Part shown: positions 5,105 through 41,472 of the stretch, one piece after another
Numbering within the stretch: the stretch's first letter is position 1
How the letters are laid out: every line of letters begins with the position of its first letter
Source: a virus
DNA length: 60,012 nucleotides
Direction: 5' to 3' (one strand)
IMG/VR virus record: IMGVR_UViG_3300021956_000015
Span: 1 to 60,012 of that record
Program-made: the position numbers and the translations under genes
Notes under the pieces: model-generated
What the model was told of the DNA's origin: nothing
Seen by the model: only the letters and a program-made list of their open reading frames with translations
The model's database searches: none

Positions 5105-5157
5105 CAGTCCTCCATCCAGTCGTCGGAGTACAGGAAGTAGTAGGGGTTATCCATCAT
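5104..5157 (-). CDS. Micro-ORF of 17 residues between ART and DUF6321-like genes
   Basis: The peptide is MMDNPYYFLYSDDWMED, rich in aromatic and acidic residues. Its first ATG overlaps the stop of the ADP-ribosyltransferase gene (ATGATGA), and its TGA overlaps the ATG of the next gene (TGATG). It therefore fills the gap exactly, either as a real micro-protein or as a coupling device that carries ribosomes to the next gene. No function is claimed. Confidence 0.4.
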   Translation of the reverse strand: MMDNPYYFLYSDDWMED

Positions 5158-5966
5158 TGGTCGTCCTCCATCAGGGCAGGCGCCATGAGTGGCGGGAGAA
5201 GGCCGTACTTGCGGAGGATTTGGATGCGATCCTCTCCTCCAGGGAAGATCACGTAGTTGCGAGTACCCTCGCCGGCTGTGCGCGAGTTGCCGTCGAAGTA
5301 CTTGAGCCCCGGGATTCCAGACCTGTACATGCGGCGAGACGCCTCCTGCATGGCGTCCCCAAAGCCACCAGGCGCGGCTGCCATGTACGCGTTCTTGCCA
5401 GTCCATCCTTCCTGGCCAAGCGTGAAGTGACGCGGAGCCGTTGCGAAGTGCCCAAGCGCCTCTCGGATCGCTGCCGGCTGGCCATCAACCGGCGCATCTA
5501 GGTCCAACAACGACTCCTCCGGGTATCCGATCTCCACCTCGTACATGTGGCCTGTCGGAACGGGAGGCAGCTCTTCCCCGGAACGCAAGTAATCCAGCGC
5601 GCCAAGGTTCAGCCGCGAGTCCAAGCTGTCCCTACCAAACATGCTGCTGTCGATTGTGTTCTGTATGGCCAAAGCCGCGTCATCTGCGTTTCCGCGACGA
5701 TGCACCCACATCGCAGCGCGCATGGCCGGGTCTGTCAGATCAACGCCTCTCCACCGCAGCGCGTCGCGATATCCGCTCGCCACATCCTCAGCTCCAGAGA
5801 AGTACAGGCCATGGCCAAACGCCTGTTCGCCCTCTCCAGTGCCGATCTTGCTGGCGTCAAACTTGGTGAAGCTGTGTGGGCTGCCGTGGTAGGCGCGGAT
5901 CGTCCCCCTGGCAGCGTCAGCAGCCTCCGCGATCAATCGGCGAACTGTGGACTCAGGCCCCGCCAT
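5154..5966 (-). CDS. ADP-ribosyltransferase (polyvalent-protein ART type)
   Basis: 270 residues. Residues 25-57 carry the signature of phage polyvalent ADP-ribosyltransferases: AYHGSPHSF, then SKIGTGEG, then FGHGLYFS (His27 and Tyr55 are the likely NAD-binding residues). The C-terminal core has IPGLKYFD, then NYVIF and IQILRKYG, again as in this family. The enzyme would transfer ADP-ribose from NAD to a host target, probably just after infection. The gene sits among late virion genes, which suggests packaging in the capsid. The last 15 residues (LMAPALMEDDQ type) resemble the ends of two neighbouring genes. It overlaps the HNH gene by 14 bases. Confidence 0.8.
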   Translation of the reverse strand: MAGPESTVRRLIAEAADAARGTIRAYHGSPHSFTKFDASKIGTGEGEQAFGHGLYFSGAEDVASGYRDALRWRGVDLTDPAMRAAMWVHRRGNADDAALAIQNTIDSSMFGRDSLDSRLNLGALDYLRSGEELPPVPTGHMYEVEIGYPEESLLDLDAPVDGQPAAIREALGHFATAPRHFTLGQEGWTGKNAYMAAAPGGFGDAMQEASRRMYRSGIPGLKYFDGNSRTAGEGTRNYVIFPGGEDRIQILRKYGLLPPLMAPALMEDDQ

Positions 5967-6267: not shown

Positions 6268-7679
6268 CACTCACCGTCCTGCATGAGGAGCGGGGCCATG
6301 ATGGCTGCGCCAACGCCTTGCTCAAGGAGGCGGCGTCGCATTTCGTCGGACATGATGTAGCGGCGGCCGGCTGTGGGCTGCGCATTATCAACAGCTTCAA
6401 CCCCTCTGTTGATTGCCTGCGTGCGCGCCGCGTGAGCTGCGGCCAACTCCCTGGCCTGCAAGTACATTTCGTTCATGCGTTCCGGACCTACGATGCCAGC
6501 AAGATCGGCCGCGATGTTGTCCAGCACGGTTTTGGCGCTTTCCGCTCCGTCATGGAAATGCCCGGCGTTTATGCGATGTGTCTGCCCGCCCAACATGGAC
6601 ATCAACACCCTTGCCCTGGCCTGCACAGCAGAAGCGCGATTGTCTAAGCCGGTCACATTTGAGCGGTTCACTATCTCGGAATAGGCCTCGTCCATGGCCT
6701 GCCTGTTGGTTGGGACCGGAGCGGGTGGCACCTCCTCCACAAGTCCACCCATCTTCCTGCCAAGTCTCTCCAGCGCGCCGGGAACCACCTTCCCGTAGAA
6801 GTGCTCGTAGTTGTCGATGTTGCCGCCCACCTTGTCAGCGATTGCCCTGGGAGCGGCGACTTCGATGGCGCGGTGGCCCTGGCGAGCGGCCTCCAGGGCG
6901 AGGCGTTTGATTAGGATGTCTGACCATGCGTCTTCAAGCGGGAATGGGAGTTCCGTCCCGGCCTCACGGCGAGCCAGCTCCAGGTCAACCGCCGGCATGT
7001 TTTCGGCGGCCTCCTGGTAGCCAGCCATGAACTCCCTCGCCTTGCGGTTGTGAATCCCCAGGTCTGACTGGAGTTCGTTGATCCGCAGGGCGTCGCCGTG
7101 GGTGTCGTAGCGGGCGTGGGCTACTGCGGAGTCTGCGCCACGCGGGTACGTGCCACCGTAACCGCCGCGCCAATGGCTGTTAAAATCACTCCCCCTCGCG
7201 CCTGGCTGTAGCAAGAGCAGTTCCGCGTAGTCGCTTCCGCCTTGCCCGTAGTCTGCGTACTGCGGGGAAGCTACTGATCGTCCCTGACCTATTGGGGACG
7301 GGGCGCCACCGCGCACTGCCACCATGTGCGGCGTGTCATCTTCGTAGTTATACGCACCTGGCACGTACTCCATCACTGGCCTGCCGCCAAGGATCGTCTC
7401 CTTGTGCGTGTAGACGGGGCTCAGTTGCTGGACGCGCCTGAGGATTTCTTCTCGCGGCACAACGTCGCGCCCGGCGACAAGCGAGTCCAGGTCAACGGCC
7501 TTCAGCTCCCAGCCCGGGACGCCTTCCTTGTGCCGCTTGAGGAGCCCCGGAAGCTCTTGCACGCGGACGTTCTCAGGCATGGCCTGGATAGCCCGCTCCA
7601 GGCGAGAGTAGATGCCAGGCCCCGGGTTGTAAGTCAGCAGGCCAGCGATCTTCCGGCCCATGGCGTCAAGCGTTGCCAT
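6267..7679 (-). CDS. Large polyvalent-protein-associated domain (LPD-type) protein
   Basis: 470 residues from the ATG at 7679; GGAGG precedes it and it overlaps the previous stop (TGATG). The N-terminus (about 18-75) has the YSRLERAIQ and LPGLLKRHKEGV pattern followed by an EEILRRVQ helix, which I recognise as the start of phage polyvalent-associated proteins. Further on come a Tyr-Gly-Glu-like segment, an ELQSDLG motif near 225 and a KRLALEAARQGH helix, all in the order seen in that family. The function is unknown; such domains occur in proteins injected with the genome. The C-terminus ends in IMAPLLMQDGE, similar to the ART and the next gene. Confidence 0.65.
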   Translation of the reverse strand: MATLDAMGRKIAGLLTYNPGPGIYSRLERAIQAMPENVRVQELPGLLKRHKEGVPGWELKAVDLDSLVAGRDVVPREEILRRVQQLSPVYTHKETILGGRPVMEYVPGAYNYEDDTPHMVAVRGGAPSPIGQGRSVASPQYADYGQGGSDYAELLLLQPGARGSDFNSHWRGGYGGTYPRGADSAVAHARYDTHGDALRINELQSDLGIHNRKAREFMAGYQEAAENMPAVDLELARREAGTELPFPLEDAWSDILIKRLALEAARQGHRAIEVAAPRAIADKVGGNIDNYEHFYGKVVPGALERLGRKMGGLVEEVPPAPVPTNRQAMDEAYSEIVNRSNVTGLDNRASAVQARARVLMSMLGGQTHRINAGHFHDGAESAKTVLDNIAADLAGIVGPERMNEMYLQARELAAAHAARTQAINRGVEAVDNAQPTAGRRYIMSDEMRRRLLEQGVGAAIMAPLLMQDGE

Positions 7680-8716
7680 CACTCATCCTCCGACGGCATG
7701 AGTGCTGGAACAGACAGCAGCCCACCGTTGCGGATGAAGTCTCGCAGCACCCAGGCTGGCGTCTCTCCCATTCGCAGCCCCTGTTCTGCGGCCGTCGCCT
7801 CAACGGCGTGCGGGAACGTGGGATCGCCAGACTCAACGCCAGTCACGTGCGCGCCGCCAATCCAGCGGGCTGACTGCAGCTCTGCCGGCGACAGCCCGGC
7901 CTGGTCCGCGAGCCGCTGCGCCATTCGTTCGGCCGCCACGTATTCATTGGGCGTGAGTTTTCCCTTGACGTACGCCTTCTCACGCGCGTTCCATTTCTGG
8001 GGAACGCCAAGCCGGGCTCCCTCATGTCGGTCGCCAGTCCATGGCATGAGATTGCCACGCAGGTCTTCCCGGAACGACAGGATTTTGTGCGACGCACCTG
8101 GCCGAGCGGCGCGATGCAGCTGATCTCCTGCGAGGAACCTGCTGGTCCACATCGCGTCGTTGATGCTGGCGACAGACCCATAGCCCTCCGGCGGCGGGTT
8201 GTCGGCAAGCCACGCCTCGGCAGCAGCCTTGGAGTCGATGTCCGGAGGCAGCAGCCCTTGCAGAGCCTTCTGCCGATACCAACTCGCCTTGCGGATGTTG
8301 GCCCGCACCGGGGCCGCAGAGGATGACCCGGCCACCATAGCGGTGAACAGGTCGAACTGGCGATTGCCCTCGTCTTCTCCAAGCTCCATGACGAACTGCT
8401 GGCGAAGCGGCTCGTTGTGATACCAGGTGTGTGCGCCCTGCTCCATGCCTCGCTCAACGTCGCGGAGAATAGTCCTCCTGCGGTTGGCAAACCCAGCCTG
8501 AACTTCGGATGGCGGGCGGCTTGTCTGATATCGAATAATCGGAGACTGCTCAACGCCCACCACCGGGGCAACGTCACGCATCGCCAGGAGGCTCAGTGCC
8601 GGAGGGCGGACCTCTCGCAGCCGGCGGATGCGAGCCAGAATCTCATCGGCCGATCTGGACGACGGGCGGACGGACCACTTGAGGACGTCGTCCGTGAGGG
8701 ATGCTGGATTAGCCAT
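7679..8716 (-). CDS. Polyvalent-type effector-like protein (possible DUF7178 relative)
   Basis: 345 residues from the ATG at 8716; a TTG 9 bases earlier in frame is possible. The middle region, with HTWYHNEPL, then a segment around FTAMVAGSSS and a basic RKASWYRQKAL helix, recalls a phage domain near DUF7178, but I hold this loosely. There is no good Shine-Dalgarno site at the start: the bases before the ATG are TTGGTCTGT. The last 15 residues (LLSVPALMPSEDE) match the hydrophobic-acidic end of the two following genes. It probably belongs to the same cargo set. Confidence 0.55.
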   Translation of the reverse strand: MANPASLTDDVLKWSVRPSSRSADEILARIRRLREVRPPALSLLAMRDVAPVVGVEQSPIIRYQTSRPPSEVQAGFANRRRTILRDVERGMEQGAHTWYHNEPLRQQFVMELGEDEGNRQFDLFTAMVAGSSSAAPVRANIRKASWYRQKALQGLLPPDIDSKAAAEAWLADNPPPEGYGSVASINDAMWTSRFLAGDQLHRAARPGASHKILSFREDLRGNLMPWTGDRHEGARLGVPQKWNAREKAYVKGKLTPNEYVAAERMAQRLADQAGLSPAELQSARWIGGAHVTGVESGDPTFPHAVEATAAEQGLRMGETPAWVLRDFIRNGGLLSVPALMPSEDE

Positions 8717-8733
8717 ACAGACCAATGCCCGGT

Positions 8734-9408
8734 TTAGGGGATCGGCCCGTCGTACCGCAACGCCCGGATGGCGTCCTCAGGGGTCTTCCAATCGCTCCAC
8801 TTTGCGATGAACCCGGGGGTTTGGTCGTACTGGTAAAGCCGCCCGTCGATGACTGCCATGGTCTTGTCAGGCATGATCCCAAGGTTGGCCGCGTGGTTGT
8901 CAATCCAGGTCCAGCCCCTCGCCCGCAGGTTGTCGGATAAATCCTGGGCCCTGTCCCACCAGAATGCCGTGCGCGGGTTGTCCTTGAACTCGTCAAGCAC
9001 CGCGGCTGCGCGAGGCTGCACGCCGTACTTCACTGGACCCTCAGAGCCGTTGATCCAGTACGGAGCGACCCCAGGGACGTCAGGCAAGTCAAATGGCTCA
9101 ACGGTATCCGATTCATGCAATGGCGCGGCCAGCTTGAGCACGTGCCTGTCAGGACCTCCAGCCGCTGGGCGGACGTCGAACACCAGGCTCGTTCCGCCAG
9201 CGCCAACGGGACCGTCATGGACATACAGGCCGTGATCGCTGATAGCATCCTGGACCCTGCGAAGGGCGTCCTCGGCCTCAGGGCGCAGGAGCGATCTGAT
9301 GCGTGCGGAAGCAGCTTGTCCCTCGCCAAGGCCTATGCCAGTGCGAGGGATTGATGCCGTCGCCATGGCGGCGCGGATGCGAGCGAGGAGCGGGGACATG
9401 TCTGCCAT
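8734..9408 (-). CDS. Protein-kinase-like protein
   Basis: 224 residues. Residues 69-78 look like a glycine-rich loop (GAGGTSLVFDV), VLKL supplies a candidate nucleotide-binding Lys at 92, and WIDNHAANLG near 168-177 resembles a kinase catalytic loop with Asp170 and Asn175. VIDG at 186-189 stands in for DFG. The order and spacing match a compact kinase-like fold of the sort found in polyvalent phage proteins. It would phosphorylate a host or phage target. It is the first large gene of the late block after a 366-base gap. No strong Shine-Dalgarno site is present. Confidence 0.6.
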   Translation of the reverse strand: MADMSPLLARIRAAMATASIPRTGIGLGEGQAASARIRSLLRPEAEDALRRVQDAISDHGLYVHDGPVGAGGTSLVFDVRPAAGGPDRHVLKLAAPLHESDTVEPFDLPDVPGVAPYWINGSEGPVKYGVQPRAAAVLDEFKDNPRTAFWWDRAQDLSDNLRARGWTWIDNHAANLGIMPDKTMAVIDGRLYQYDQTPGFIAKWSDWKTPEDAIRALRYDGPIP

Positions 9409-21423: not shown

Positions 21424-21484
21424 GTTCATCTTCGCAGTGATCGTTGGCGTCCTGATCTTCTTCGGCACCACACCGAGGCACTAA
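21410..21484 (+). CDS. Micro-membrane protein, 24 residues, GTG start
   Basis: Starts inside the end of the previous gene and ends in a TAATG overlap with the recombinase gene. VIHPEFIF leads into one hydrophobic helix and a TTPRH tail. No strong Shine-Dalgarno sequence, so coupling is the likely way it is translated. Confidence 0.45.
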   Translation: MIHPEFIFAVIVGVLIFFGTTPRH

Positions 21485-22233
21485 TGGCAAAGGTCTGGGG
21501 ATACGTTCGCGTCAGCACCGACGATCAGGAGAACTCTGTCCACAACCAGATCGAACGCATCAAGGAGCAGGCTGCCAAGGAGGGCATGCCTCTCGCCATG
21601 ATCTATGTGGACGAGGATGTGACCGGGAAGATTCCACTTCGCAACCGGCCGCAGGGCCGGCTGCTGTGGGATGCGTTGGAGCCTGGCGATGTCATCGTCT
21701 TCAACAAGGTGGACCGCGTGTTCCGCAGCGTCCGAGACGCCACGGACACCGTGCACACCTGGCTGGACAAGGGCATCAGCCCCGTGATCTTGGACCTGGG
21801 GATCGACCTGCGGACGCCTGCCGGCCGCCTGTTTTTCCACCAGCTCGCCTCGTTCGCGGAGTTTGAGAGGGAGATGATTGGCCAGCGGGTACGCGAGGTC
21901 CACTCTTATTTAAGGAAGCACGGGCTGCCACGCGGTAACCGTCCCTTCGGCTGGCAGCGTGACCGCCCGGGGAAGGGTGCGCGGTTCGTTCCTCTGGACG
22001 CAGAGCGGCGACTGGCTGAGCGGGTGTGCGAGATGCACTCTTCCGGGATGTCTTACTCCGCGATTGCCTGGGCCCTGATGCGGGAGCGGGTGACGAAGCC
22101 GGGGAAGAAGCCGTCCGACAAGCGGGGCGTTTGGTACTCCGTGTCGGAGATTCACGGGCTGGCGAATGCTCATCGGCAGGGATACCCAATCGTCCCGCGA
22201 CGTCACGTGCGAGCCGGCGGGACGCAAGGCTAG
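21484..22233 (+). CDS. Serine recombinase (resolvase/invertase family)
   Basis: 249 residues. GYVRVSTDDQEN near residues 7-18 holds the catalytic serine (Ser11), and the DRVFRS motif near 80 is the Arg-containing active-site loop. FEREMIGQRVREV begins the linker helix, and GMSYSAIAWAL looks like the DNA-binding helix-turn-helix. The length fits a small recombinase, not the large serine integrases. It would recombine short sites, perhaps to resolve dimers or invert a segment. Its 3' end overlaps the opposite-strand sigma gene. Confidence 0.85.
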   Translation: MAKVWGYVRVSTDDQENSVHNQIERIKEQAAKEGMPLAMIYVDEDVTGKIPLRNRPQGRLLWDALEPGDVIVFNKVDRVFRSVRDATDTVHTWLDKGISPVILDLGIDLRTPAGRLFFHQLASFAEFEREMIGQRVREVHSYLRKHGLPRGNRPFGWQRDRPGKGARFVPLDAERRLAERVCEMHSSGMSYSAIAWALMRERVTKPGKKPSDKRGVWYSVSEIHGLANAHRQGYPIVPRRHVRAGGTQG

Positions 22234-22687
22234 CGGACCGGATGTTGAGCGAGAACTGCTCGCTCATGTCCACTATCCTGGCCTTGCCGATGAACCTGGC
22301 CTCAGCCATCTCGCGGTCCCTGGCTGGCATGCCTGAGATGGCGTCGCTGAGGTGGTCTATTTCGTCCGTGACGCCCGTCTCTGCCTCAGCCGCCTCCATG
22401 CCTACCCGCTCGCCGGGTGCCCGCGTAAGCCTCCGTATGGCCTTCAGCATGCCATTGAGGATGGCCCTGGCGAAGTACTTCTTGGGGTAGGGGAGGAGGG
22501 CCGGGTTGTAGGTGCGGGCAGCCCGGCACATGGCCAGGTATCCCTCTCCCTCCAGGTCCGGGATCAGCGCAGACCGCTGCCACGCCGGCCGGCTCTGGAC
22601 GAAGTAGTGGGCCGCGGTGGCGACCAGGTCATAGTACTCAGTGACGAGCTGCTGCTGCTGCCTGGAGAGCTTGGATCGCTTGCTCAT
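21776..22687 (-). CDS. Sigma70-family factor with long antisense tail
   Basis: 303 residues from the ATG at 22687. Residues 20-90 match sigma70 region 2: a LIPDLEGEGYLAMCRAARTYNP segment, then YFARAILNGMLKAIRRL. Around 115-160 ISGMPARDREMAEARF followed by a helix-turn-helix-like segment is region 4. The recognisable protein ends near residue 170, but the frame stays open for another 130 residues, over the serine recombinase gene on the other strand; that tail is basic and low-complexity. A real stop may be missing because of a frameshift. It probably redirects host RNA polymerase to phage promoters. Confidence 0.65.
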   Translation of the reverse strand: MSKRSKLSRQQQQLVTEYYDLVATAAHYFVQSRPAWQRSALIPDLEGEGYLAMCRAARTYNPALLPYPKKYFARAILNGMLKAIRRLTRAPGERVGMEAAEAETGVTDEIDHLSDAISGMPARDREMAEARFIGKARIVDMSEQFSLNIRSASLASRRLARDVAGRLGIPADEHSPARESPTRSTKRPACRTASSPASSPAPASGPRQSRSKTSRKSASRTPAQPVAALRPEERTAHPSPGGHAASRRDGYRVAARASLNKSGPRVPAGQSSPSQTPRTRRAGGKTGGRQASAGRSPGPRSRG

Positions 22688-22838
22688 GATGTTCCAGTCT
22701 GGCCTGAGTCTTGCTGACAAACTCAGGCATGCCCTCCATGGCGTGCGCGATCAGCGCCACCTTGGCGTGGATTGACATGGCCCATGGGACCACGGCAATC
22801 AGGACGGTGATTACGATCAGCATCTGGTCAGCAGTCAT
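22638..22838 (-). CDS. Small one-pass membrane protein
   Basis: 66 residues from the ATG at 22838. MTADQMLIVITVLIAVVPWAM is a hydrophobic N-terminal helix, followed by a charged helical tail with Ala and Gln repeats. The topology resembles a small holin or spanin-like accessory. Overlaps the sigma gene by 50 bases. Candidate lysis protein. Confidence 0.5.
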   Translation of the reverse strand: MTADQMLIVITVLIAVVPWAMSIHAKVALIAHAMEGMPEFVSKTQARLEHHEQAIQALQAAAAARH

Positions 22839-23004
22839 CCTCAACCCCCTCAGCAATCATCTCCAGCATCCCGCCGGCCGCCTCGTCCGGCAGCTTCCCC
22901 TTCCGGGTGTCAGCCATGATCCGTCTGACAGCGTCCGCCCATTCCTCCGGAGGGAACTGGTAGACCCAGGCCTCCGTCGCTGAGTAGGCGGCCAGGCGGA
23001 TCAC
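22828..23004 (-). CDS. Small protein, GTG start
   Basis: 58 residues starting at the GTG that overlaps the previous stop (GTGA). FPPEEWADAVRRIM and an acidic C-terminus. Not recognised. Part of the protease cluster by position. Confidence 0.5.
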   Translation of the reverse strand: MIRLAAYSATEAWVYQFPPEEWADAVRRIMADTRKGKLPDEAAGGMLEMIAEGVEDDC

Positions 23005-23231
23005 TTCTTTTCGATGCACTGCCCATCCGGGCAGGCGTCCTTTCGCTCCGTGCATGGGCAGTTCGTCCAGTTCAGGTTGTCTCCGGTCCTCACCTTTCCA
23101 GTGCCCTTGCACTTAGGGCAGTTCGGCAGCGGGGGCTTGGGGGCCGGCTTGGCCTCTTCCATCTGGGCGACGATGGCCGAGGTGGTGGCGATGATGGCCA
23201 CGTAGTCAGGCGTGTAGGCGTCGAAGAACAT
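23001..23231 (-). CDS. Small zinc-ribbon protein with hydrophobic N-terminus
   Basis: 76 residues. A hydrophobic start (YVAIIATTSAIVAQM) is followed by a Pro/Lys linker and CPKCKGTGKV, then further cysteines (NCPCTERKDACPDGQC). One metal site of the Cys-x2-Cys-x-Gly-x-Gly type is likely. Overlaps the papain-like gene by one base. Confidence 0.55.
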   Translation of the reverse strand: MFFDAYTPDYVAIIATTSAIVAQMEEAKPAPKPPLPNCPKCKGTGKVRTGDNLNWTNCPCTERKDACPDGQCIEKK

Positions 23232-24181
23232 CAGATTCTCCCAATGGTTCCGAGGTCAGGGAGCGTGTTCGGCGGGAATCCCTGGACGTCGGAGTACGCC
23301 CAGATGTCCTCCGACTCCACGCACACGGAGTACCCGGCATCGTCGGTGACGATCATGCCAGGGACCTGGGGCGGATAGTCATCCGGCCAGTTGGGGACTG
23401 GAGTGTTCCACGCCGCCCAGCTGTTGGCGATGAACCAGACGCGGAACGGCCAGAAGGTATGCGTGTCGTCATACCCAACCGTGGCCATGTCATGTCCCCA
23501 CCCTGGCGATGAACGCGGGTGGATGTTCTTGCCGTTTGGCTTGCTGCTCCACGCGGCGTTCTGCCCGGAGTGGATGCCGTACCCGTTGAACAACGCGTCC
23601 ATGGCGTCGTCCATGCTCTTGACCAGGGCGATGGTGCCAACCTTGTTCCGGTTGCACAGCGTCTGGACGTCCGGCGGGACGCCTCCGTTCCTGCCCCAGC
23701 GTGTTCCGATCTGGCCATCGTAGTTCGTCAGGTCCACCACGCCCGGGAAGTTGTCACGCGGCAGGAACCCAACGTCACGCTCAAACCGGCTGGCCCTGGC
23801 TGGGCTCATGCCCTCGCCGCCGTGACCGCGGGCCCCGTATGTGGGCTCCGTCGCGGTTCGCCTGAACCAGGAGAACGGTGCGCCGTGTACCAAAAGCGAT
23901 ACAGCACGCGTGCAGTCCCTGGCGTTGCGGCTGCCATGGCTGACACAGTCGCCTACGGTTTGCCTCTCGGAGAATGCCTTGGGGTCCAGCTTCAGCACGT
24001 AACCCCAGAGCAATGCACGCTTGCCCTTGCCAGACGACGGCGACGAGAAGTAACGCACGGGGTTTGTGGCGAGGAACTCTTCCTTGTCACGCGGAGACGG
24101 CACATAGCCAGCGAATCCTCCGGCCTCGTACGCCCTGACAAGCTCGTCGGAATTGTGGAACAAGTCTTCATCTTGCGGCAT
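23231..24181 (-). CDS. Papain-like cysteine protease
   Basis: 316 residues from the ATG at 24181 (GGAGG 6 bases upstream; the open frame has a TTG two codons earlier). RQTVGDCVSHGS gives oxyanion-hole Gln74 and catalytic Cys79, WGHDMATVGYDD gives His230, and IANSWAAWN gives Asn253. All four papain residues are in the right order and spacing. No signal peptide is visible. Phage papain-like peptidases are rare. It follows the subtilisin-like gene and a membrane protein, so it may take part in lysis or in cleavage of envelope protein. The target is unknown. Confidence 0.85.
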   Translation of the reverse strand: MPQDEDLFHNSDELVRAYEAGGFAGYVPSPRDKEEFLATNPVRYFSSPSSGKGKRALLWGYVLKLDPKAFSERQTVGDCVSHGSRNARDCTRAVSLLVHGAPFSWFRRTATEPTYGARGHGGEGMSPARASRFERDVGFLPRDNFPGVVDLTNYDGQIGTRWGRNGGVPPDVQTLCNRNKVGTIALVKSMDDAMDALFNGYGIHSGQNAAWSSKPNGKNIHPRSSPGWGHDMATVGYDDTHTFWPFRVWFIANSWAAWNTPVPNWPDDYPPQVPGMIVTDDAGYSVCVESEDIWAYSDVQGFPPNTLPDLGTIGRI

Positions 24182-24671
24182 TGGCAACCTCCTTCAGAGC
24201 AGCCACCAACGCGGCACGCTTCTCGTCAGTCAGAGCCACATCGTCCTTGCCAATCGCCTTGACCAACAGCTCATCGATGGCGACGTCCAGCCCGGAGTAC
24301 TTCCCGGGCAGGTCGGTTCCCTTGAACGCCAGGTCCAACGCGTCGGCATTGGCTTTCCGCCACTTGCCCACGGTGGCGATGATGTGGTCATCCCGCGACA
24401 CAACGTCCGCCATGGCCGTGTAGTACGCGCGGACGCGTGCCTTGTCCTGCTGGCTGGCGGACTTCAGGATCGTCTGCACCTTGCTCTGCGGCCCGGACGG
24501 CCCGGCCGTGTCCTTGGGCGGAATGAACGCCACCACCAGGACCACCGCGGCGATCACCGCAAACAGGTGCTGCAGCACCACGGCCGGCGTCATCGACTTG
24601 ATCAGCGGCCACGCGTAGCTCAGGGCCACACACGCCGCCACGCACACGGCAACGATCTGATAGTGGGTCAT
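24168..24671 (-). CDS. Membrane protein with two N-terminal helices (holin-like)
   Basis: 167 residues. Residues 5-26 and 33-52 are two hydrophobic helices with a short turn, and the rest is a charged, helical cytoplasmic or periplasmic domain with Lys and Ala repeats. An overlap of 4 bases with the subtilisin-like gene couples it. Two helices close together with a charged tail fit a class II holin, though the large domain is unusual. It lies between two proteases. Confidence 0.55.
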   Translation of the reverse strand: MTHYQIVAVCVAACVALSYAWPLIKSMTPAVVLQHLFAVIAAVVLVVAFIPPKDTAGPSGPQSKVQTILKSASQQDKARVRAYYTAMADVVSRDDHIIATVGKWRKANADALDLAFKGTDLPGKYSGLDVAIDELLVKAIGKDDVALTDEKRAALVAALKEVANAAR

Positions 24672-25558
24672 ACGATTCGCTTCTCGCTTTCGTCCAGGAG
24701 GCTTGCGGGGTTGATAAGCCCCCAGCCGTACAGGTGGTCATGCCCTGGGGCGCCTGCATCGACCGAGGTGTTCTTGACCAGGGCGTGCGCCTTCGACCCG
24801 TTGCGAGGGGGAGGCATCTGATTCCAGCCCAACGCCAGCACGCCGGCCACAAACGGCGCCGCCATGCTGGTGCCGGAGAGCGTGGCGTACCCGCCACCCA
24901 GCCAGCAGGATGTGATCTCCTCCCCTGGGGCGACGACGTCGATCTCCCGTCCACGGCTGGAGAACTCGCACACCCCTCCATGCCGGCCGGCGGCACCGAC
25001 GGCGATGGCCTGCTCGTAGGCGGCAGGGTAGGACACGCGCCCCCCGTCATTGCCGGCGGCGCAGACACAGACAACGCCTGACGCGTCCGCCGTCTTGATC
25101 GCATCCGTCAGATCGGCGGTGCGGACAATCGACCCAAGGCTCATAACGATGATGTCGCACTTGGCTTCGATGGCGAACAGGATTGCTCTGGCAACGGACT
25201 CCAGCGACCCGGAGCCGTTGTTGTTCAGCACCTTGAGGCTGACGATCTCGGCCTGCGGGGCGACCCCAGTCATGGGCCCGCGGGCAGCGATGACGCCAGC
25301 CACGTGAGTACCGTGACCGTTGGTGTCCGTAGCAGAGCAGTCCTTGGTGAAGTTCCGGTGCAGCTTGACCACGCCCTGGAGCGCCGGGTGGCTGTCGTCC
25401 ACGCCGGTATCAAGCACACCCACCCGCACGCCGGCCCCCTGGTGACGACTCCAGAGGGCCGGCAATCCGTACGCGGAGATAGACCAGTCCAGGCCTGAGG
25501 AGGGGAGGGCCTGTGCGACTGCCTCAACGCGGTACGGCGGCAGGTGAGCGAGCATCAC
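24668..25558 (-). CDS. Subtilisin-like serine protease
   Basis: 296 residues. The catalytic triad is complete: Asp50 in VGVLDTGVD, His82 in NGHGTHVAG, Ser231 in SGTSMAAPFVAG. Asn170 in AAGNDGG supplies the oxyanion hole. The N-terminus has neither a signal peptide nor a long propeptide, so the enzyme may be released by the lysis event itself or be active in the cytoplasm. Intact subtilases are rare in phage genomes. It lies upstream of a membrane protein and the papain-like protease on the same transcript, with 4-base overlaps. Confidence 0.9.
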   Translation of the reverse strand: MMLAHLPPYRVEAVAQALPSSGLDWSISAYGLPALWSRHQGAGVRVGVLDTGVDDSHPALQGVVKLHRNFTKDCSATDTNGHGTHVAGVIAARGPMTGVAPQAEIVSLKVLNNNGSGSLESVARAILFAIEAKCDIIVMSLGSIVRTADLTDAIKTADASGVVCVCAAGNDGGRVSYPAAYEQAIAVGAAGRHGGVCEFSSRGREIDVVAPGEEITSCWLGGGYATLSGTSMAAPFVAGVLALGWNQMPPPRNGSKAHALVKNTSVDAGAPGHDHLYGWGLINPASLLDESEKRIV

Positions 25559-25878
25559 TCATCCCTGGAGATCAGGACGCGGATGAGTGAGGTGACGATG
25601 GGGGCCACCACGTTCAGCAGGATCGGCAGGGCGATGCCCAGGCTCTGGATTTTGGCCAGGTCCTCCTGGGCCTCCTGCTCCGTGATCGCCTGGGCCTGAG
25701 CCTGGAACAGCGGGAACGATTCGATGATCGGCAGCAGGGCCTTGGCGACCTGGTAGACGATCTCCAGCTTCTCGGCCAGGCCGGCGGCGTCGTTCCACTT
25801 GGAGACGATGGCGGAAATCTCCCGCAGCACCCCCACGTTCTGGAGCAGCCACCGGACAACGACGAACTTATCGACCAT
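25555..25878 (-). CDS. Small hydrophobic-tailed protein
   Basis: 107 residues from the ATG at 25878, with GAGAGGAG upstream. Helical, with a hydrophobic C-terminal segment (IALPILLNVVAPIVTSLIRVLI) that could span the membrane. Overlaps the subtilisin-like gene by 4 bases. A candidate accessory of the protease cluster; the family is not recognised. Confidence 0.55.
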   Translation of the reverse strand: MVDKFVVVRWLLQNVGVLREISAIVSKWNDAAGLAEKLEIVYQVAKALLPIIESFPLFQAQAQAITEQEAQEDLAKIQSLGIALPILLNVVAPIVTSLIRVLISRDE

Positions 25879-26176
25879 GCTTTCTCCTCTCGCAGGCAAT
25901 GGCCACAATGGCGTGGCCGGCAATGTCCATCAGGGTCTTGTCCCTAGTAATTGTCTCCAGCGGGCCCCTGAGCCGCCGGGATTTCTCGCCGATGCGGGCG
26001 GCCTGGTAACGCCAGGCTTCGATGCCGTCCTGCTCCACGCCCAGGGCGTTTTCCAGGCAGTCCTCGCCGCATCCGTAGTAGGTCCTCTTCCTGGTCAGCA
26101 GCCGGTACAGCTCGTCGCACAGCTCCCGGTACGGGTCACCAGTTGACGTCTCTTGAGGCTGAGACGATTCGTCCAT
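25868..26176 (-). CDS. Small protein of MazG/DUF6378-like type
   Basis: 102 residues from the ATG at 26176. YYGCGEDCLENALG and KTLMDIAGHAIVAI recall the small DUF6378-like nucleotide-metabolism family of phages. The resemblance is limited. A hydrolase of nucleotides is possible. Confidence 0.5.
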   Translation of the reverse strand: MDESSQPQETSTGDPYRELCDELYRLLTRKRTYYGCGEDCLENALGVEQDGIEAWRYQAARIGEKSRRLRGPLETITRDKTLMDIAGHAIVAIACERRKHGR

Positions 26177-26474
26177 ACTCAGCCCAGAAACTGGCTGTGT
26201 GAGGGTCCTCGTCGTCGGTGCAAAGGTACGCAGTTCTGGCATGGGCCCACTCCTCGCAACAGGTGTCAATGAAACTATCTGCGCCGCACGTGTTGGCGAT
26301 GCAGATCACTCCTCTGTTCTCGTCCTCGTCAAAGCAGAAGTAACCCAGCATGTCAGGCATGCTTTTGGGGTCCCTCAGGTAGCACCTTAGCGGGAACGGA
26401 ACTGGGAACTTCCTCTGAGCCCACCTCCGAAACCGCTTTAGCAACAGCCTTCTCCAGTCGCAGGACGAACTCAT
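26136..26474 (-). CDS. Zincin-like protein with changed HExxH
   Basis: 112 residues. The motif expected to be HEWAHA is EEWAHA here (CCEEWAHAR), so the first zinc-binding His is Glu. FWAEYGRIV near the end is the rest of the family pattern. It overlaps the Hjc-like gene by 122 bases in another frame. Either an inactive metalloprotease relative or one with altered metal binding. The family is common in phages of this kind. Confidence 0.6.
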   Translation of the reverse strand: MSSSCDWRRLLLKRFRRWAQRKFPVPFPLRCYLRDPKSMPDMLGYFCFDEDENRGVICIANTCGADSFIDTCCEEWAHARTAYLCTDDEDPHTASFWAEYGRIVSASRDVNW

Positions 26475-35553: not shown

Positions 35554-38500
35554 CTAAACCCCCATAATGGAGAGCGGGTCGTCCTGCATCTTCTTCCGCT
35601 CGCGAGCCTTCTTCGCAGCCTCGCTCTGCAGGATGCGATACAGCAGGTACTGACGCTGCTCCTGCGGCGAGAGCTTCACCAGGTCCTCAGGCTTGATGAA
35701 CAGGTTTTCGTAGGAACTCATGCCCTTGGCCTGGTCCAGGAGCTGGTTCAGCGTGGTGCGTGCGGCAAGCCGGACGGTTCGCTCCTGGTCAACGTCCTGC
35801 AGCTTTAGCCCCGTGAGCATGTTGAAGAAGAACTTTGCCGCTCGCTCTTGCGGGCTGATGCGGGAGTCCATCGCCTGGCGGATGGCCCCAACAACTCGCG
35901 AGCCGCCAGGCGCATTGAATGCGACCTGGTCCCACAGCCGCCCGCCCGGGAGGTTCATCTGCTCGGCGAGCGAGTACAGGTCGGACAACTGGCGACCGCT
36001 GTAGAACTGACGGTTGGTGGCCACTTCCAGCGGCGCCTTGATCAGCGGGTTCGTCTGACCCAGCAGGTTCTGACCAGTCTTGGTGACCGCGTCCAGGAAC
36101 TGGCCGGTGAGCGTGTTGCCCACGCCAGGGGTGAGTAGGTTGATCAGCCCCTCATGCGGCAAGTCCAGGTTGGTGAGCACGCGGGTGATGCCTGGCGTGT
36201 TCACTCCCAGCAGCGGGACCGACGAGTCGATTGGGATCGCAGCCGACTGCCTGAGGTACTCAGGAGTGAACCGATCCTCGGATGGCGCAGACGCCCGGTT
36301 GATCGCCCGGATGCTCTGCCCCGTGATCCCGGACGGGTTGTACAGAAGCTCCTGCGCCACCAGCGGGGTGATGCCCTTCTGGTAACTGTAGAAGGGCACT
36401 ATCCGCTTCAGGATGTCGCGCTCAAAGGAGCTGAACGCCTCAGGCCGGTAGTTAATCTGAGTCAGGTCTGCCACCGCCTTGGCTGCCGCAGGAGCATCGC
36501 CCTTACGGACACGCGTGAGGTACGTGCCGATGCGGTTGAACGCGTCGCTCCCCTCGGCGGCCCGGTCGCCAAGCTCAAGCAGCCAGTTGGGATTACCCTC
36601 AGAGGTGCGGAGCGAGAAGATGTTGAGCGGCAAGGGGCGGTTGCGAATGCGCGCGCCCATGCCCTGGAGGATCGCACCAGACCCACCCGGGAACGTCTCG
36701 GCGTACGTGAGGTTGCTGCCCATCCTCCCAAGGTCGTCGGACACCGTGCCTGACGTCAGCCCCTCGCCGCCGGCCTCCGTCAGAAACTTCCGGACGCGGG
36801 CTGCGGAGAGCTGCTCCGCAGACGGCGCGGCACCGACAGGGAACAGGTCGTCCACCTGGTAGCCTGGGGCAGACTCAAGTCGGCGGGCCAGCGGCCCGTA
36901 GTCTCCGCCCCTGGCCCGCACTCCGGCAAGCGCGTCGAACAGATTGAAGCCGCTCTGCGTGGCTCCGGCAAACGCACCGGAGTACATGTCGCGGACATAC
37001 CGGGCAGGCCACAGCAACGCCAGCGTCTTGAAGCTCTGCGTGTACTTGTCGGCTAAAGCAAACAGCCCGGTCGCTTCCCTCGGAGCCCTGGCACGCACCA
37101 GGTTCTCGTTCATCCGGTCCACCATCTCACGCGAGAAGGACCGTCCGCCCAACAGTTCCTCAGGGGTGATGCCCATGCGGTTAGCCAGCGCAAGCACGCC
37201 AGCGTCGCCCTCGGACTTGGCCATGAAACCAAGCTCGCGAAGTGCCTCCATCGGCGTGTAGGACACGCCCCCCGCAACATCGTCAGCAGACTGGAGCAGG
37301 GCGTTGGACGACAGTTCGTCCAGCAGCAGATCGGCCGTGGCCTCGCGCCTGGCGTTGTGGCGGATGTAGTGCGTCAGATCGTTGAGCGCGTTGCCGTACA
37401 GCGGAATGCCTTCGGACGCTCGCTGCAGCGGCGTTCTCCGGAGGCTGTCGGCCAGGTCTTCGTAAGCCTTCTGCTGCCGACGGCTGACTTCGGCCGCAGC
37501 CGCAATCCCTTCCTCGCTGAAGTCATCTGGGTTAAGGTGCTCCCCCATGTACCCAAACGGCGTGCTGCCTTCGCGGATCGGCTTGAACTGGTCGGCGTTC
37601 GCCGCCAGCCACTCGTCAATGAGGTTGCGTGCCTCAGTGTTTGGCGCATTCCGGAGAGCGGCCTGCAGGTCGGCGTCCTGGTACATCTTGTCCAGGACCC
37701 ACCGCGGGAACGCCTCCGTGTACCCACGCCGCGACGAGCGAGTGCCGTCATTAATAGACGCCACGGCGCGGTCACGCAGCGGGATGACCTTGGACCCCTG
37801 GAACCGCGGATCGAACCTGGCGTTGGGGATATCAATCGCCTGACGCGTGAAGTAGTCGATGCCGTTTGGCAGGTCTTTGTGGCGCAGCGGAACGCCAAGG
37901 CGCTCAGCCCTGGCCAACGCATCTGCCTGTGCGTCGGTGGCGAACCGCACGGCACGCTGCACGCCGGGGTCGCGGAACAGGCTGCGCATCTCCGGCGGCA
38001 GCTGCTCCAGCTGGTTTTCCATGACGTTACCAAACGCCCTGGCAAAGTCCTGCGAGCGGACGATGTCCTCGCCAGACCTGCCTGCAAGCGGCGTTCCGGC
38101 GATGGCGTTCGCGTTGTTCTGCAGGTAGGCCGAGACGTCGTCAAAGAGCTGCTGATGCATGTCAGCCAGCCGCCTGTTCGCCTCCCGCGAGGAGAGCTGC
38201 TCGGCCCGCGTGACCTTGCGGCCGAACATCTGCCCAGGCTCGTCCGTGAAGCCCTTCACGCGAGCATCGAACATCGCCTGCGCAGCCCGCAGGGCAGGCC
38301 CCAGCACGGGCGTCGCCCTGGCGTTTGTCTTCAGCCAATCGCTGCCGCGGGCCAGGTAGTCGCCGACTGTGGACCCGTACATGTCGAACGCGTCGTCAAC
38401 CAGGTACGGAACCTTGACGTAGTTGCTGCGAGTGAGCGGTTGCGTCCACTGCTCTGCCGTGCCGCCAACCTGTTCAAACGCCCGCCTCGCTGCCTGGAGC

Positions 38501-39153
38501 GTCTCTTGGTGCGCGGCGTCCTCTGCCATGGACCGCAAGGCGGCGTCGTCAATGCCCTGCCCGGCCCGCCTGGCGGCCTCTGTGGCGTTGTCGATGGCAA
38601 GCGTTTCAGGGGTGCTGTTGCGGAGAAAGGTCGCCGGGCCGAAGTTTGGAACCGCTCCAGACTCGGCGGCGCGAGCGGCGCGCAGCACCAGGTCGTCGCC
38701 GGCCGTTCCCATCAGACCGGCACGCGTCGCGGCCTTGGCGGCAGCGGTTTTCGCCCCAGTCCCCAGCAGTGCCGACAGTCCAAATGAGGCGTATGTCAGT
38801 GGGTCCAGAAGAACCTCGGCCCCAAGGCCTCCAGCGAAGTTCCCCCACGTGTCGTTCTTTCCAACCAGGCCGTACTGCCGAAGCAGCTCACGGCCAGTAA
38901 CTCGGTCCTCCGACGTCCCAAACACCGACAGCGGGTCGCCTGCCAGCACGCCACGGACAAAGGCGCCTGGAGTATCCAGGAGGTATCCGACTGCCGACAG
39001 ACCAGACGATCCCTGGTTGGCAAGGTCACGGAGGAGGGAGGTCTTCTCCTCCTCTGGCATAAGGTCTGCGAGGGTGCGACGCGTCCGCAGCGGGACGATC
39101 CCAATCGGATCGATGTCGTCGCCGTAAATGTCAAACAGCGGTGATTGCGCCAT
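35554..39153 (-). CDS. Giant internal virion / ejection protein
   Basis: 1199 residues, the last gene of the late block. Helical, with hydrophobic stretches (near 700-730 TFKTLALLWPARYVRDM) and a charged C-terminus. Length and position, after two other helical virion proteins, resemble podovirus inner-core proteins that leave the capsid with DNA and make a channel across the envelope. No lytic transglycosylase motif is found by eye. The RQQKAYEDLADSLRR region suggests coiled coil. Confidence 0.65.
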   Translation of the reverse strand: MAQSPLFDIYGDDIDPIGIVPLRTRRTLADLMPEEEKTSLLRDLANQGSSGLSAVGYLLDTPGAFVRGVLAGDPLSVFGTSEDRVTGRELLRQYGLVGKNDTWGNFAGGLGAEVLLDPLTYASFGLSALLGTGAKTAAAKAATRAGLMGTAGDDLVLRAARAAESGAVPNFGPATFLRNSTPETLAIDNATEAARRAGQGIDDAALRSMAEDAAHQETLQAARRAFEQVGGTAEQWTQPLTRSNYVKVPYLVDDAFDMYGSTVGDYLARGSDWLKTNARATPVLGPALRAAQAMFDARVKGFTDEPGQMFGRKVTRAEQLSSREANRRLADMHQQLFDDVSAYLQNNANAIAGTPLAGRSGEDIVRSQDFARAFGNVMENQLEQLPPEMRSLFRDPGVQRAVRFATDAQADALARAERLGVPLRHKDLPNGIDYFTRQAIDIPNARFDPRFQGSKVIPLRDRAVASINDGTRSSRRGYTEAFPRWVLDKMYQDADLQAALRNAPNTEARNLIDEWLAANADQFKPIREGSTPFGYMGEHLNPDDFSEEGIAAAAEVSRRQQKAYEDLADSLRRTPLQRASEGIPLYGNALNDLTHYIRHNARREATADLLLDELSSNALLQSADDVAGGVSYTPMEALRELGFMAKSEGDAGVLALANRMGITPEELLGGRSFSREMVDRMNENLVRARAPREATGLFALADKYTQSFKTLALLWPARYVRDMYSGAFAGATQSGFNLFDALAGVRARGGDYGPLARRLESAPGYQVDDLFPVGAAPSAEQLSAARVRKFLTEAGGEGLTSGTVSDDLGRMGSNLTYAETFPGGSGAILQGMGARIRNRPLPLNIFSLRTSEGNPNWLLELGDRAAEGSDAFNRIGTYLTRVRKGDAPAAAKAVADLTQINYRPEAFSSFERDILKRIVPFYSYQKGITPLVAQELLYNPSGITGQSIRAINRASAPSEDRFTPEYLRQSAAIPIDSSVPLLGVNTPGITRVLTNLDLPHEGLINLLTPGVGNTLTGQFLDAVTKTGQNLLGQTNPLIKAPLEVATNRQFYSGRQLSDLYSLAEQMNLPGGRLWDQVAFNAPGGSRVVGAIRQAMDSRISPQERAAKFFFNMLTGLKLQDVDQERTVRLAARTTLNQLLDQAKGMSSYENLFIKPEDLVKLSPQEQRQYLLYRILQSEAAKKARERKKMQDDPLSIMGV

Positions 39154-39156
39154 TTG

Positions 39157-41472
39157 TCAGAAGCTCGGCAGTCGGCCACCCGGCATGAACGGCGGTAGGC
39201 GTGGGTCCACCGGAGGTAGAAGCGGCTGCGGCGGTGAGTTCTGAACGCCAGGTATTGGCGTTGGCATCGGCACAGCGGGTGCGGCCGGCGCTACAGGTGC
39301 AGCCTGTGGCTGCGCTGCCGCTGGTGGACGAAGGTCCCTGAGAATGGCTTCAATCTCATGCGACTGCGCACCTTCTCGCTGCATGGCTTCACGCGCGTCG
39401 TTCTCTTCGTACCCGGGCCAAGCATCATGCCACGCCGCCGCGGCAGCCCTTCGGATTCGTTCCTGTCTCGCCGCAGCTGCTGCCGACTGTTGCGCGGCAA
39501 GCTCCTGCAGCGTGGCGCTCCCTTCTGCAAAACCGGCGCCGGTGGCGACTCTCATGCCCAGGTCGGTCAGTTGCTGGTTGTGAGCAGCCTGCACATCGTT
39601 TGGCGTCGCACCACGGATGGTTCCGCCGCTGAGTTGGTTCGCCAGGACCTGGTTCTGCCACTGGTCAGGAAGCATCCCAAGCCCCGCGGCAAACGCACGC
39701 GTGCCACCGGGTCCGCCAGTCGGCTGGCCTCCAGCCAGCATCGCCTGCCGGCGGGACTCCTTAACGCGAGCGAGGCGGTCCTTGTCTCGGTTGGTTTGGG
39801 CCTGGTCGCGAGCGGTGTCATAGACGGCAGACGAACCTGGGGCGCCAACCCCGTCCCTCTCGGCCTTTGCGACAAGCGCCTCGGCTTCGGCGTAGGTCAT
39901 GTTGCCCTGCTCGGCAATGGCCTTGATGCGAGCCCTGCGAGCCCGTGGCGATCCGGCGGGGTGTCCGCCAAACCCTACCGGCGTCCCCTTGTGAGCCCTT
40001 GCTGCCCCTGCTCCAGTAAGCTCATAGACCTGAACGTCATTGCCAGCGACGTCCTGTCGCGTGACGATCTCGTATCCTCGGTCGATCAGGTCTTGACGAT
40101 ATCCCGGAACTCCATCACGGCCGGGCTGATTGGTCGCAACCGCCCGGACCATGTAGTGAACGCCGGTTGGCGTCTGGATCGGAACCATCCCGCGGTCCAT
40201 CTGTGCCTGGTCGCGGCGAGAGTAGTCATACGCGCCGGAACCAGACGGGGCCCGGTAGTTGTACTGGTACTCCTCCTCAGGGCTCATTTGGCGAGACACG
40301 GAGGTCGGAACGCCTGTGGGGTCATTCGGACCAGGAACCGTGAAGTTTGGCGTCTGCAGCTCAGACTGCGATCCGCCGCGCTGTCGCGAGTCCAGCTGGG
40401 CGTGCGTGCTAGTGGTTCCGGTGCGGACTTTGCGAGACGCCTCAACCTGCGCAGCATTCCATGCTTCGTCACGGCCCATGTTCTGAGTGCGAACAAGGTG
40501 CGTCGCAATCTGCTTCACAAGGTCCGTGTCGGCGCCATCGAACGCTTCCCATCCGGCCCACTCGTCAGCCGGTGCCGCCGGGCCGGGGGCCCTCGCCGGA
40601 ACTCCGCCGCGTCCCGGGCCGCGCAGCAGGTCACGCTGAGCACGCGACCACGCCTCGTCGCGCGGAATGCCCTGCGCCACAAGATCATTAGCCACCTCTT
40701 CGACGCGGGCCCTATCAAGACCTTCGGCAGCAGTCGGCTTGTCGTCCCATGACTGCCGGGAGCCGAACGGAACCTCTCGTTCGACAGGCAGTGGAAGCGA
40801 CGCCCCGGAGGTGCGGCTCTCGCCAGCGGACTGCGGAGCTGCTGGCGGTGGCCCGGACGCCGACGCCTCGGCATTTACCCGCCGCATCGCCTGCGCCACC
40901 GCGTTCCTCAACGCTTGCTCCTGCTCCCTGAGCACATCAGGGCGCACGCCACGCGGAGGGTTGGTCAGGAACTGCTGGAGCCTGGCCTGGTGATATTGCA
41001 GTTGCGTTGCCGCGCTAGGCGTCTTGGGCTGTGCTGGGCTGGCGGACTGCGAGCGAGCTTCGCGGGATCGCTGCTGCCAGGCGGCCTGCTCCTCGTCCAT
41101 GGCACGCGCACGGGCGTCGTCAGGATGCAGCCCCCTCTTGATGAAGTAATCCTCCATCTCGCGGATGCGCATCTCGCTATCCGTGTACTCTTCCTTCTCT
41201 GCCATGGCGATGGCCATCTCTGGCGTGTAGACGCCAGGGTTTTCCACCATGATCCGATGGGCGCGCGTCTGGACGGCGTCCTTGCGGTCCGGGTATCCTC
41301 CAGCCATGCCGTGCGGGTTCTGTCCAGGCTGCAGCCACTCGTCGGCGCCAACGACGTCCAGCGGAATGTCAGGCAGCGGGAACGGGCGGTTCCACAGGTC
41401 CCGCGACATCCGCTCAACGCCCTGCGCCTGGCGCGCGTCCCATTCGGCTGCAGGCATCACTCCGCGGGGCAT
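39157..41472 (-). CDS. Pro/Gln/Arg-rich virion protein
   Basis: 771 residues with several disordered Pro/Ala/Gln-rich segments separated by short helices such as EVANDLVAQGIPRDEAWSRA, which recurs with small change (LVRTQNMGRDEAWNAA), so the protein contains a repeated helical motif. C-terminus is Pro-rich with repeated PP pairs. A likely ejection or internal core component. No catalytic motif. Confidence 0.6.
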   Translation of the reverse strand: MPRGVMPAAEWDARQAQGVERMSRDLWNRPFPLPDIPLDVVGADEWLQPGQNPHGMAGGYPDRKDAVQTRAHRIMVENPGVYTPEMAIAMAEKEEYTDSEMRIREMEDYFIKRGLHPDDARARAMDEEQAAWQQRSREARSQSASPAQPKTPSAATQLQYHQARLQQFLTNPPRGVRPDVLREQEQALRNAVAQAMRRVNAEASASGPPPAAPQSAGESRTSGASLPLPVEREVPFGSRQSWDDKPTAAEGLDRARVEEVANDLVAQGIPRDEAWSRAQRDLLRGPGRGGVPARAPGPAAPADEWAGWEAFDGADTDLVKQIATHLVRTQNMGRDEAWNAAQVEASRKVRTGTTSTHAQLDSRQRGGSQSELQTPNFTVPGPNDPTGVPTSVSRQMSPEEEYQYNYRAPSGSGAYDYSRRDQAQMDRGMVPIQTPTGVHYMVRAVATNQPGRDGVPGYRQDLIDRGYEIVTRQDVAGNDVQVYELTGAGAARAHKGTPVGFGGHPAGSPRARRARIKAIAEQGNMTYAEAEALVAKAERDGVGAPGSSAVYDTARDQAQTNRDKDRLARVKESRRQAMLAGGQPTGGPGGTRAFAAGLGMLPDQWQNQVLANQLSGGTIRGATPNDVQAAHNQQLTDLGMRVATGAGFAEGSATLQELAAQQSAAAAARQERIRRAAAAAWHDAWPGYEENDAREAMQREGAQSHEIEAILRDLRPPAAAQPQAAPVAPAAPAVPMPTPIPGVQNSPPQPLLPPVDPRLPPFMPGGRLPSF

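What the first reader, a model, noticed from the sequence alone, without database searches (positions are those of the whole stretch)
22638..26474. Protease-based lysis cassette without a visible murein hydrolase
A complete subtilisin-like triad (Asp50, His82, Ser231) and a complete papain-like set (Gln74, Cys79, His230, Asn253) lie with two or three small membrane proteins on one transcript. I find no muramidase, amidase or endopeptidase motif anywhere in the window. A phage of a host with a protein-rich cell envelope could lyse it with proteases and a holin-like protein. Planctomycete-like hosts would fit, but the host is not established.
Basis: partly seen in the sequence, partly recalled or inferred. 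Interest (0 to 1): 0.75.

Follow-up and report, generated by a model that had tools for sequence, protein, structure and literature searches.

The report
Protease-armed phage lysis-like cassette
A complete 60-kb phage genome and dozens of relatives carry a conserved gene block pairing a papain-like protease with membrane proteins and show none of the usual wall-cutting enzymes that were searched for, so these viruses may burst their hosts by digesting protein rather than murein; this is not yet shown by experiment.

Summary
The stated residues are exact, and the window is a complete genome with 140-bp terminal repeats. Pfam scans of nearly all its ORFs find no murein hydrolase. Six hydrolase families are absent from every related record tested (31-43 records each, up to 175 kb).

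The unit is larger than described. Its core is a papain-like C1 protease coupled to a two-helix membrane protein ('E'); 72 of 72 testable loci found through E have the protease directly after it. A second hydrophobic protein and a cysteine-rich protein usually accompany them. This core recurs in three divergent phage groups with hundreds of IMG/VR loci. No match exists among 50,697 phage records.

The subtilase is a near-constant addition in the window's phage family. It looks like a cytoplasmic, self-inhibited 'intracellular subtilisin'. One relative has exchanged both proteases for a distant papain with an N-terminal membrane anchor in the same slot, the rule in group 3 (81 of 87). This resembles cytoplasmic versus signal-anchored endolysins and argues against a prohead protease.

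Best reading: a lysis cassette whose effector is a protease (about 0.5). The host is unknown.

The parts
23231..24187 (-). papain-like C1 cysteine protease (likely start 24181), Q74/C79/H230/N253; proposed lysis effector
   Evidence: residues; family hits Peptidase_C1; C1A fold; conserved Q, C, H and NSW in relatives
24168..24671 (-). protein E: two membrane helices plus helical domain; obligate partner encoded directly before the papain
   Evidence: model; homology across groups; 72 of 72 testable E loci followed by the papain
24668..25558 (-). subtilisin-like S8 protease, D50/H82/S231, N-terminal LPPY resembling the LIPY motif of intracellular subtilisins
   Evidence: Pfam S8 8e-56; best PDB relatives are intracellular subtilisins; LPPY in 22/22 group-1 subtilases
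25555..25878 (-). small protein with C-terminal hydrophobic segment; holin candidate
   Evidence: one membrane window; conserved in group 1, dN/dS 0.13-0.14
23001..23231 (-). Cys-rich protein (CPKCKGTGKVRTGDN..CPC); relatives in groups 2 and 3 carry the same motif, several with signal-peptide-like starts
22828..23112 (-). small conserved protein of unknown role
   Evidence: conserved in group 1 and in G035
22638..22838 (-). N-terminal membrane helix plus predicted coiled coil; holin or spanin-like candidate by size only
   Evidence: one membrane window; conserved in 13 loci; dN/dS 0.13-0.16
25868..26179 (-). conserved small protein upstream of the cassette core
26136..26474 (-). conserved small protein with EEWAHA..H, resembling a degenerate HExxH metallopeptidase motif; role unknown
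   Evidence: 11 loci; dN/dS 0.06-0.07
21776..22687 (-). sigma-70-like protein at the distal end, possibly a regulator; membership in the cassette uncertain
   Evidence: TIGR02937 E=7e-7; Sigma70_r2 below cut-off; conserved next to the cassette

Best explanation
This is a late envelope-lysis cassette in which a papain-like protease takes the place of the murein hydrolase. Proposed mechanism: (1) the papain-like protease is made in the cytoplasm, co-translated with E, a membrane protein that probably holds, delivers or restrains it (pairing shown, role inferred); (2) one or more small hydrophobic proteins (25555-25878, 22638-22838) open or depolarise the inner membrane as holins do (inferred from size and topology only); (3) the protease then reaches a load-bearing protein layer outside the membrane and cuts it, and the cell bursts (inferred). 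The subtilase is a cytoplasmic zymogen with an ISP-like pro-peptide that would be switched on at lysis and add broad proteolysis (motif shown, activation inferred). In group 3 and in record G035 the protease carries its own N-terminal membrane anchor, comparable to signal-anchor-release endolysins.
For: Complete genome without a recognised murein hydrolase; six hydrolase families absent from 31-43 related records each, against a base rate of 97.4% of dsDNA phages encoding a recognised lytic protein (PMC12596118). Papain is a core gene when records are chosen by terminase or NrdB. Slot exchange for an anchored papain in G035; anchor in 81/87 group-3 papains and 0/73 of groups 1-2. Coupling to membrane protein E in 72 of 72 testable loci. 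Shared small membrane and Cys-rich neighbours in three phage groups. Anchored papain just upstream of terminase-like and portal-like genes in two proviruses. Catalytic residues kept and strong purifying selection.
Against: No function is demonstrated. No holin or spanin is recognised. The window's papain and subtilase have no export signal, so release depends on an unproven pore. In some group-2 phages the papain lies next to tail-fibre-like genes. The host is unknown, and the one host group proposed has murein. Only six hydrolase families were searched across records; divergent lysins cannot be excluded.
Confidence: 0.5

Rival explanations
1. Envelope protease with another purpose: the papain and E remodel the host surface during infection (for example removing surface proteins for superinfection exclusion, or freeing progeny from sheaths or aggregates), and lysis is done by an unrecognised protein.
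For: The anchored form and membrane partner fit any envelope role; fibre-like neighbours in group 2.
Against: Leaves all these phages without a recognised lysis enzyme and does not explain the two-protease cassette with several small membrane proteins.
Confidence: 0.2
2. Intracellular proteolysis: the proteases act in the cytoplasm, degrading host proteins or recycling amino acids; the membrane proteins are unrelated neighbours.
For: ISP-like subtilase without export signal; soluble papain in groups 1-2; ISP-type subtilases occur in phages of Firmicutes far from lysis genes.
Against: The group-3 and G035 papains carry a membrane anchor in the same slot, and the papain is inseparable from a membrane protein.
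Confidence: 0.13
3. Virion or prohead maturation protease, or a virion-borne entry enzyme.
For: Proteases are common in phage assembly; in some group-2 phages the gene is near fibre-like genes.
Against: In the window the gene is far from portal and putative capsid genes; the portal is P22-like, and P22-type phages are not known to use a prohead protease (general knowledge); an N-terminal membrane anchor does not fit.
Confidence: 0.07
4. An unrecognised murein hydrolase does the lysis, and the proteases are helpers against an additional S-layer or protein coat.
For: Profile searches cannot exclude a very divergent lysin; several large unknown ORFs (35554-39153, 39157-41472) have no Pfam match.
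Against: The absence holds for six families in 31-43 records of several phage groups; all would need equally divergent lysins.
Confidence: 0.1

Closest known systems
Holin-endolysin(-spanin) lysis cassettes of tailed phages
   Same: Compact run of overlapping genes with small membrane proteins and one enzyme; anchored and soluble versions of the enzyme share one slot
   Different: The enzyme is a papain-type protease (plus a subtilase here), not a murein hydrolase; no recognised holin or spanin
Signal-anchor-release (SAR) endolysins
   Same: Group-3 papains begin with an N-terminal membrane segment
   Different: Protease, not glycosidase; release from the membrane not tested; the window's own enzyme lacks the anchor
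Intracellular subtilisin proteases (ISPs)
   Same: Best PDB relatives; N-terminal L-x-P-Y motif; no leader
   Different: Second motif residue is Pro in group 1 (pattern is I/F/L/V, PMC6220982); encoded by a phage beside a papain
Peptidase C1A (papain, cathepsin B, xylellain); Cwp84, a cell-surface cysteine protease
   Same: Fold and Gln-Cys-His-Asn catalytic set; weak profile match to 4d59/4ci7 (E about 0.006)
   Different: Below Pfam detection for the window sequence; GDCVSHG around the catalytic Cys; own RGHGGEGM motif
Hypothetical holin-plus-protease lysis of S-layer hosts (proposed for archaeal viruses, PMC4456609)
   Same: Same logic: membrane disruption plus proteolysis of a protein layer
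   Different: That review states that S-layer-degrading enzymes were unknown; the present phages carry bacterial-type genes (sigma-like protein, SSB)

Membership tests
Peptidase C1A (papain) | Catalytic Gln, Cys, His, Asn in order | tested here: met
   Q74/C79/H230/N253; Q, C, H, N columns invariant in 15 diverse members
Peptidase C1A (papain) | Papain fold | tested here: met
   AlphaFold2 model against PDB, C1A proteases prob 1.00, xylellain E=3.8e-9, TM about 0.5
Peptidase S8, intracellular subtilisin type | Asp-His-Ser triad in S8 domain | tested here: met
Peptidase S8, intracellular subtilisin type | No leader; pro-peptide with [LVI]-[IFLV]-P-[YFH] | tested here: inconclusive
   No leader; LPPY in 22/22 (Pro at position 2), LLPY in four group-2 subtilases; pattern from PMC6220982
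Canonical phage lysis cassette (holin-endolysin) | Murein hydrolase encoded | tested here: not met
   No Pfam hydrolase in the genome; six families absent in relatives
Canonical phage lysis cassette (holin-endolysin) | Holin | tested here: inconclusive
   Small membrane proteins present, none matches a holin family significantly
Canonical phage lysis cassette (holin-endolysin) | Causes lysis | not testable with these tools
   Needs expression or deletion
SAR endolysin | N-terminal signal anchor | tested here: not met
   Window papain has none; 81/87 group-3 papains have one
Prohead protease | Located in the head module near portal and capsid genes | tested here: not met
   Cassette at 21.8-26.5 kb; portal 51994-53985, putative capsid gene 772-1884

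The most novel reading that the evidence does not exclude
A widespread class of tailed phages, present in at least three divergent genome types yet unmatched in the phage records searched, lyses hosts whose load-bearing wall is protein rather than murein (for instance S-layer-bearing, murein-free Chloroflexota such as SAR202), using a papain-like 'protein-wall endolysin' with a dedicated membrane partner.
Probability: 0.25. Interest if true: 0.93.

Novelty: new variant of a known kind. Interest (0 to 1): 0.74.

Why it matters
Phage lysis is understood mainly as murein hydrolysis. A protease-based exit has been proposed for S-layer hosts, with no such enzyme known at the time of that review (PMC4456609). 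This cassette gives named, expressible candidates: a protease, its obligate membrane partner E, and a soluble/anchored pair exchanged in the same slot. It also gives a genomic marker for a large, uncultured phage assemblage (at least 364 group-3 papain loci, 68 group-1/2 loci and 448 E loci in IMG/VR).

Tried and rejected
Papain in phage records by tblastn: none for group 1, 2 or 3. E (24168-24671), the putative capsid protein (772-1884), the 4059-4838 protein and the L232 portal-like protein: no phage hits; 4059-4838 none in plasmids either. PHROGs for the cassette membrane proteins: nothing significant. E model against PDB: no match. Host assignment: genome contigs gave contigs binned as Synechococcaceae, Flavobacteriales, SAR202 and Lokiarchaeota; I reject these as host proof because the contigs read as phage and the taxa disagree. 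A planctomycete-like N-terminal motif (LENRQLLS, from memory) in one group-2 subtilase was not supported by NCBIfam. IMG genome numbers of two proviruses could not be resolved. Papers on planctomycete phages or papain lysis: none relevant. Prohead protease was considered and judged unlikely.

Full report
OBSERVATION. The subtilase (24668-25558, minus) has Asp50, His82 and Ser231, and the papain-like ORF (23231-24187, minus) has Gln74, Cys79, His230 and Asn253 counted from the MPQDED start. The subtilase is a clear Peptidase_S8 (8e-56). The papain-like protein has no match of its own in Pfam, PHROGs or PDB sequences, but its family does: 6 of 15 members hit Peptidase_C1, and an AlphaFold2 model from 15 relatives (pLDDT 80, pTM 0.83) matches xylellain and cathepsin B. 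Consecutive ORFs overlap by a few bases, and the cassette ORFs show purifying selection (dN/dS 0.06-0.36 against two close relatives, 0.08 for the papain). Transcription was not tested.

COMPLETE GENOME, NO MUREIN HYDROLASE. The window ends carry a 140-bp direct repeat (139/140), and two relatives of 58.9 and 59.8 kb run across the junction, so 'nothing in the window' means nothing in the genome. Pfam scans of about 100 ORFs gave replication, recombination, portal, fibre and endonuclease families but no murein hydrolase. Six-frame searches for Amidase_2, Phage_lysozyme, SLT, Peptidase_M15_4, CHAP and M23 found none in 31-43 related records each, up to 175 kb, while the control genomes gave hits each time; the window itself was in five of these six searches. 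As a base rate, 97.4% of dsDNA phages in a reference set encode a recognised lytic protein (PMC12596118). Very divergent lysins cannot be excluded.

THE CASSETTE IN RELATIVES. Four IMG/VR records at about 90% papain identity keep the cassette in synteny. Iterated searches found 68 papain loci. Group 1 (14 loci, 59-91% identity) always has the subtilase just upstream. Group 2 (mostly 35-41% identity, genomes up to 175 kb) has no subtilase next to the papain, but many members carry a 69-73 aa membrane protein directly before it, Cys-rich proteins with signal-peptide-like starts, and E-like proteins. Selection that ignored the papain gives the same picture: of terminase-selected relatives, all 10 records of 54 kb or more encode it; of NrdB-selected large phages, all 8 records of 100 kb or more do, and 12 of 14 overall. 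Shorter records without it may simply be incomplete.

A NATURAL EXCHANGE. Record G035 (59.9 kb) is close to the window by terminase (79%), yet lacks the subtilase at this place, and the slot holds a papain only 23% identical that begins with a membrane segment. This anchored type (group 3) has at least 364 loci. By hydropathy, 81 of 87 group-3 papains have an N-terminal membrane segment and 0 of 73 in groups 1 and 2. Papain profiles of the groups match at E=1.7e-42. A soluble and an anchored enzyme sharing one slot resembles soluble and signal-anchored endolysins, and a capsid-internal protease would not be expected to carry an anchor.

THE OBLIGATE PARTNER. Protein E (24168-24671) has two predicted membrane helices and a helical domain (pLDDT 89, no PDB match). 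E profiles of group 1 match group 3 (E=2.7e-11) and group 2 (E=3e-12). Searching with group-3 E, 72 of 76 loci newly fetched contain the papain directly downstream with overlapping reading frames; the other four end within 104 bases of E. In L093 E is fused to the Cys-rich motif. E could be a holder, inhibitor, chaperone or pore; this is open.

THE SUBTILASE. Its best solved relatives are intracellular subtilisins, and the N-terminal LPPY aligns with the LIPY of 7y6m. LPPY is present in 22 of 22 group-1 subtilases, and four of the five group-2 subtilases have LLPY. In ISPs this motif lies in a pro-peptide that blocks the active site, and the protein has no leader (PMC6220982). The second residue is Pro here, outside the published pattern, so the assignment is likely but not certain. 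The subtilase is thus probably a cytoplasmic zymogen and an accessory: 8 of 8 group-1 records against 5 of 23 others.

MECHANISM. I favour a lysis cassette with a protease effector (0.5). Shown: intact protease residues, coupling to E, core status, slot exchange with an anchored form, absence of the searched hydrolases. Inferred: membrane opening by a small protein, protein-layer substrate, late timing, cell burst. In two proviruses the anchored papain precedes what read as terminase and portal genes, a usual place for lysis genes. Rivals are an envelope protease with another purpose, intracellular proteolysis, a virion protease, and an undetected lysin with the proteases as helpers.

HOST. 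Not established. The planctomycete idea meets a difficulty: planctomycetes have lysozyme-sensitive murein sacculi (PMC4432640). SAR202 lacks murein genes and shows an S-layer-like coat (PMC10444878), and two contigs of one SAR202 MAG carry the papain, but these contigs read as phage and other members fell into Synechococcaceae, Flavobacteriales and Lokiarchaeota bins, so binning is not evidence of host.

LIMITS. Membrane segments are hydropathy calls; loci are related and overlapping, so counts are not independent; the profile-profile E-values come from small alignments; group counts mix complete and partial contigs.

Noticed in passing
L072:1930-3873, L083:6735-8690, L084:6657-8699; longer papain ORFs also in G036 (724 aa) and G047 (735 aa): Papain genes interrupted by intein-like insertions exactly at the catalytic Cys (L083, L084) or at the Asn-Ser-Trp motif (L072).
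   Followed up: partly
window 21776-22233: The sigma-like ORF (minus) and the resolvase ORF (plus, 21484-22233, Pfam 1.4e-32) overlap antisense by about 460 bases, and both are conserved in relatives.
   Followed up: no
L107:6452-7219 and 7570-8937 (record G014): A group-2 phage with three proteases: papain, a subtilase with an N-terminal LENRQLLS stretch, and a DegP-like protease with a signal-peptide-like start.
   Followed up: partly
L036:6809-7201, L107:11205-11546, L231:4778-5347: Thioredoxin-like proteins with signal-peptide-like starts occur near the cassette or elsewhere in these phages; they might keep a thiol protease reduced or open disulfides.
   Followed up: no
L093:7558-8346: E-like protein fused to the Cys-rich motif, suggesting that the two act together.
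   Followed up: no
window 4059-4838: Very Cys-rich 259-aa protein without matches in Pfam, phage or plasmid records.
   Followed up: partly
L220:1195-14430 (G052 contig 7): A 4411-aa ORF in the phage-like contig binned with a SAR202 MAG.
   Followed up: no
window 5154-5966: Possible ADP-ribosyltransferase domain (ART-PolyVal, E=1.2e-5, below the family cut-off).
   Followed up: no
L231 and L232: Contig names carry what look like IMG isolate-genome numbers (638341020, 2891333991), so these may be proviruses of cultured strains and the fastest way to a host.
   Followed up: partly
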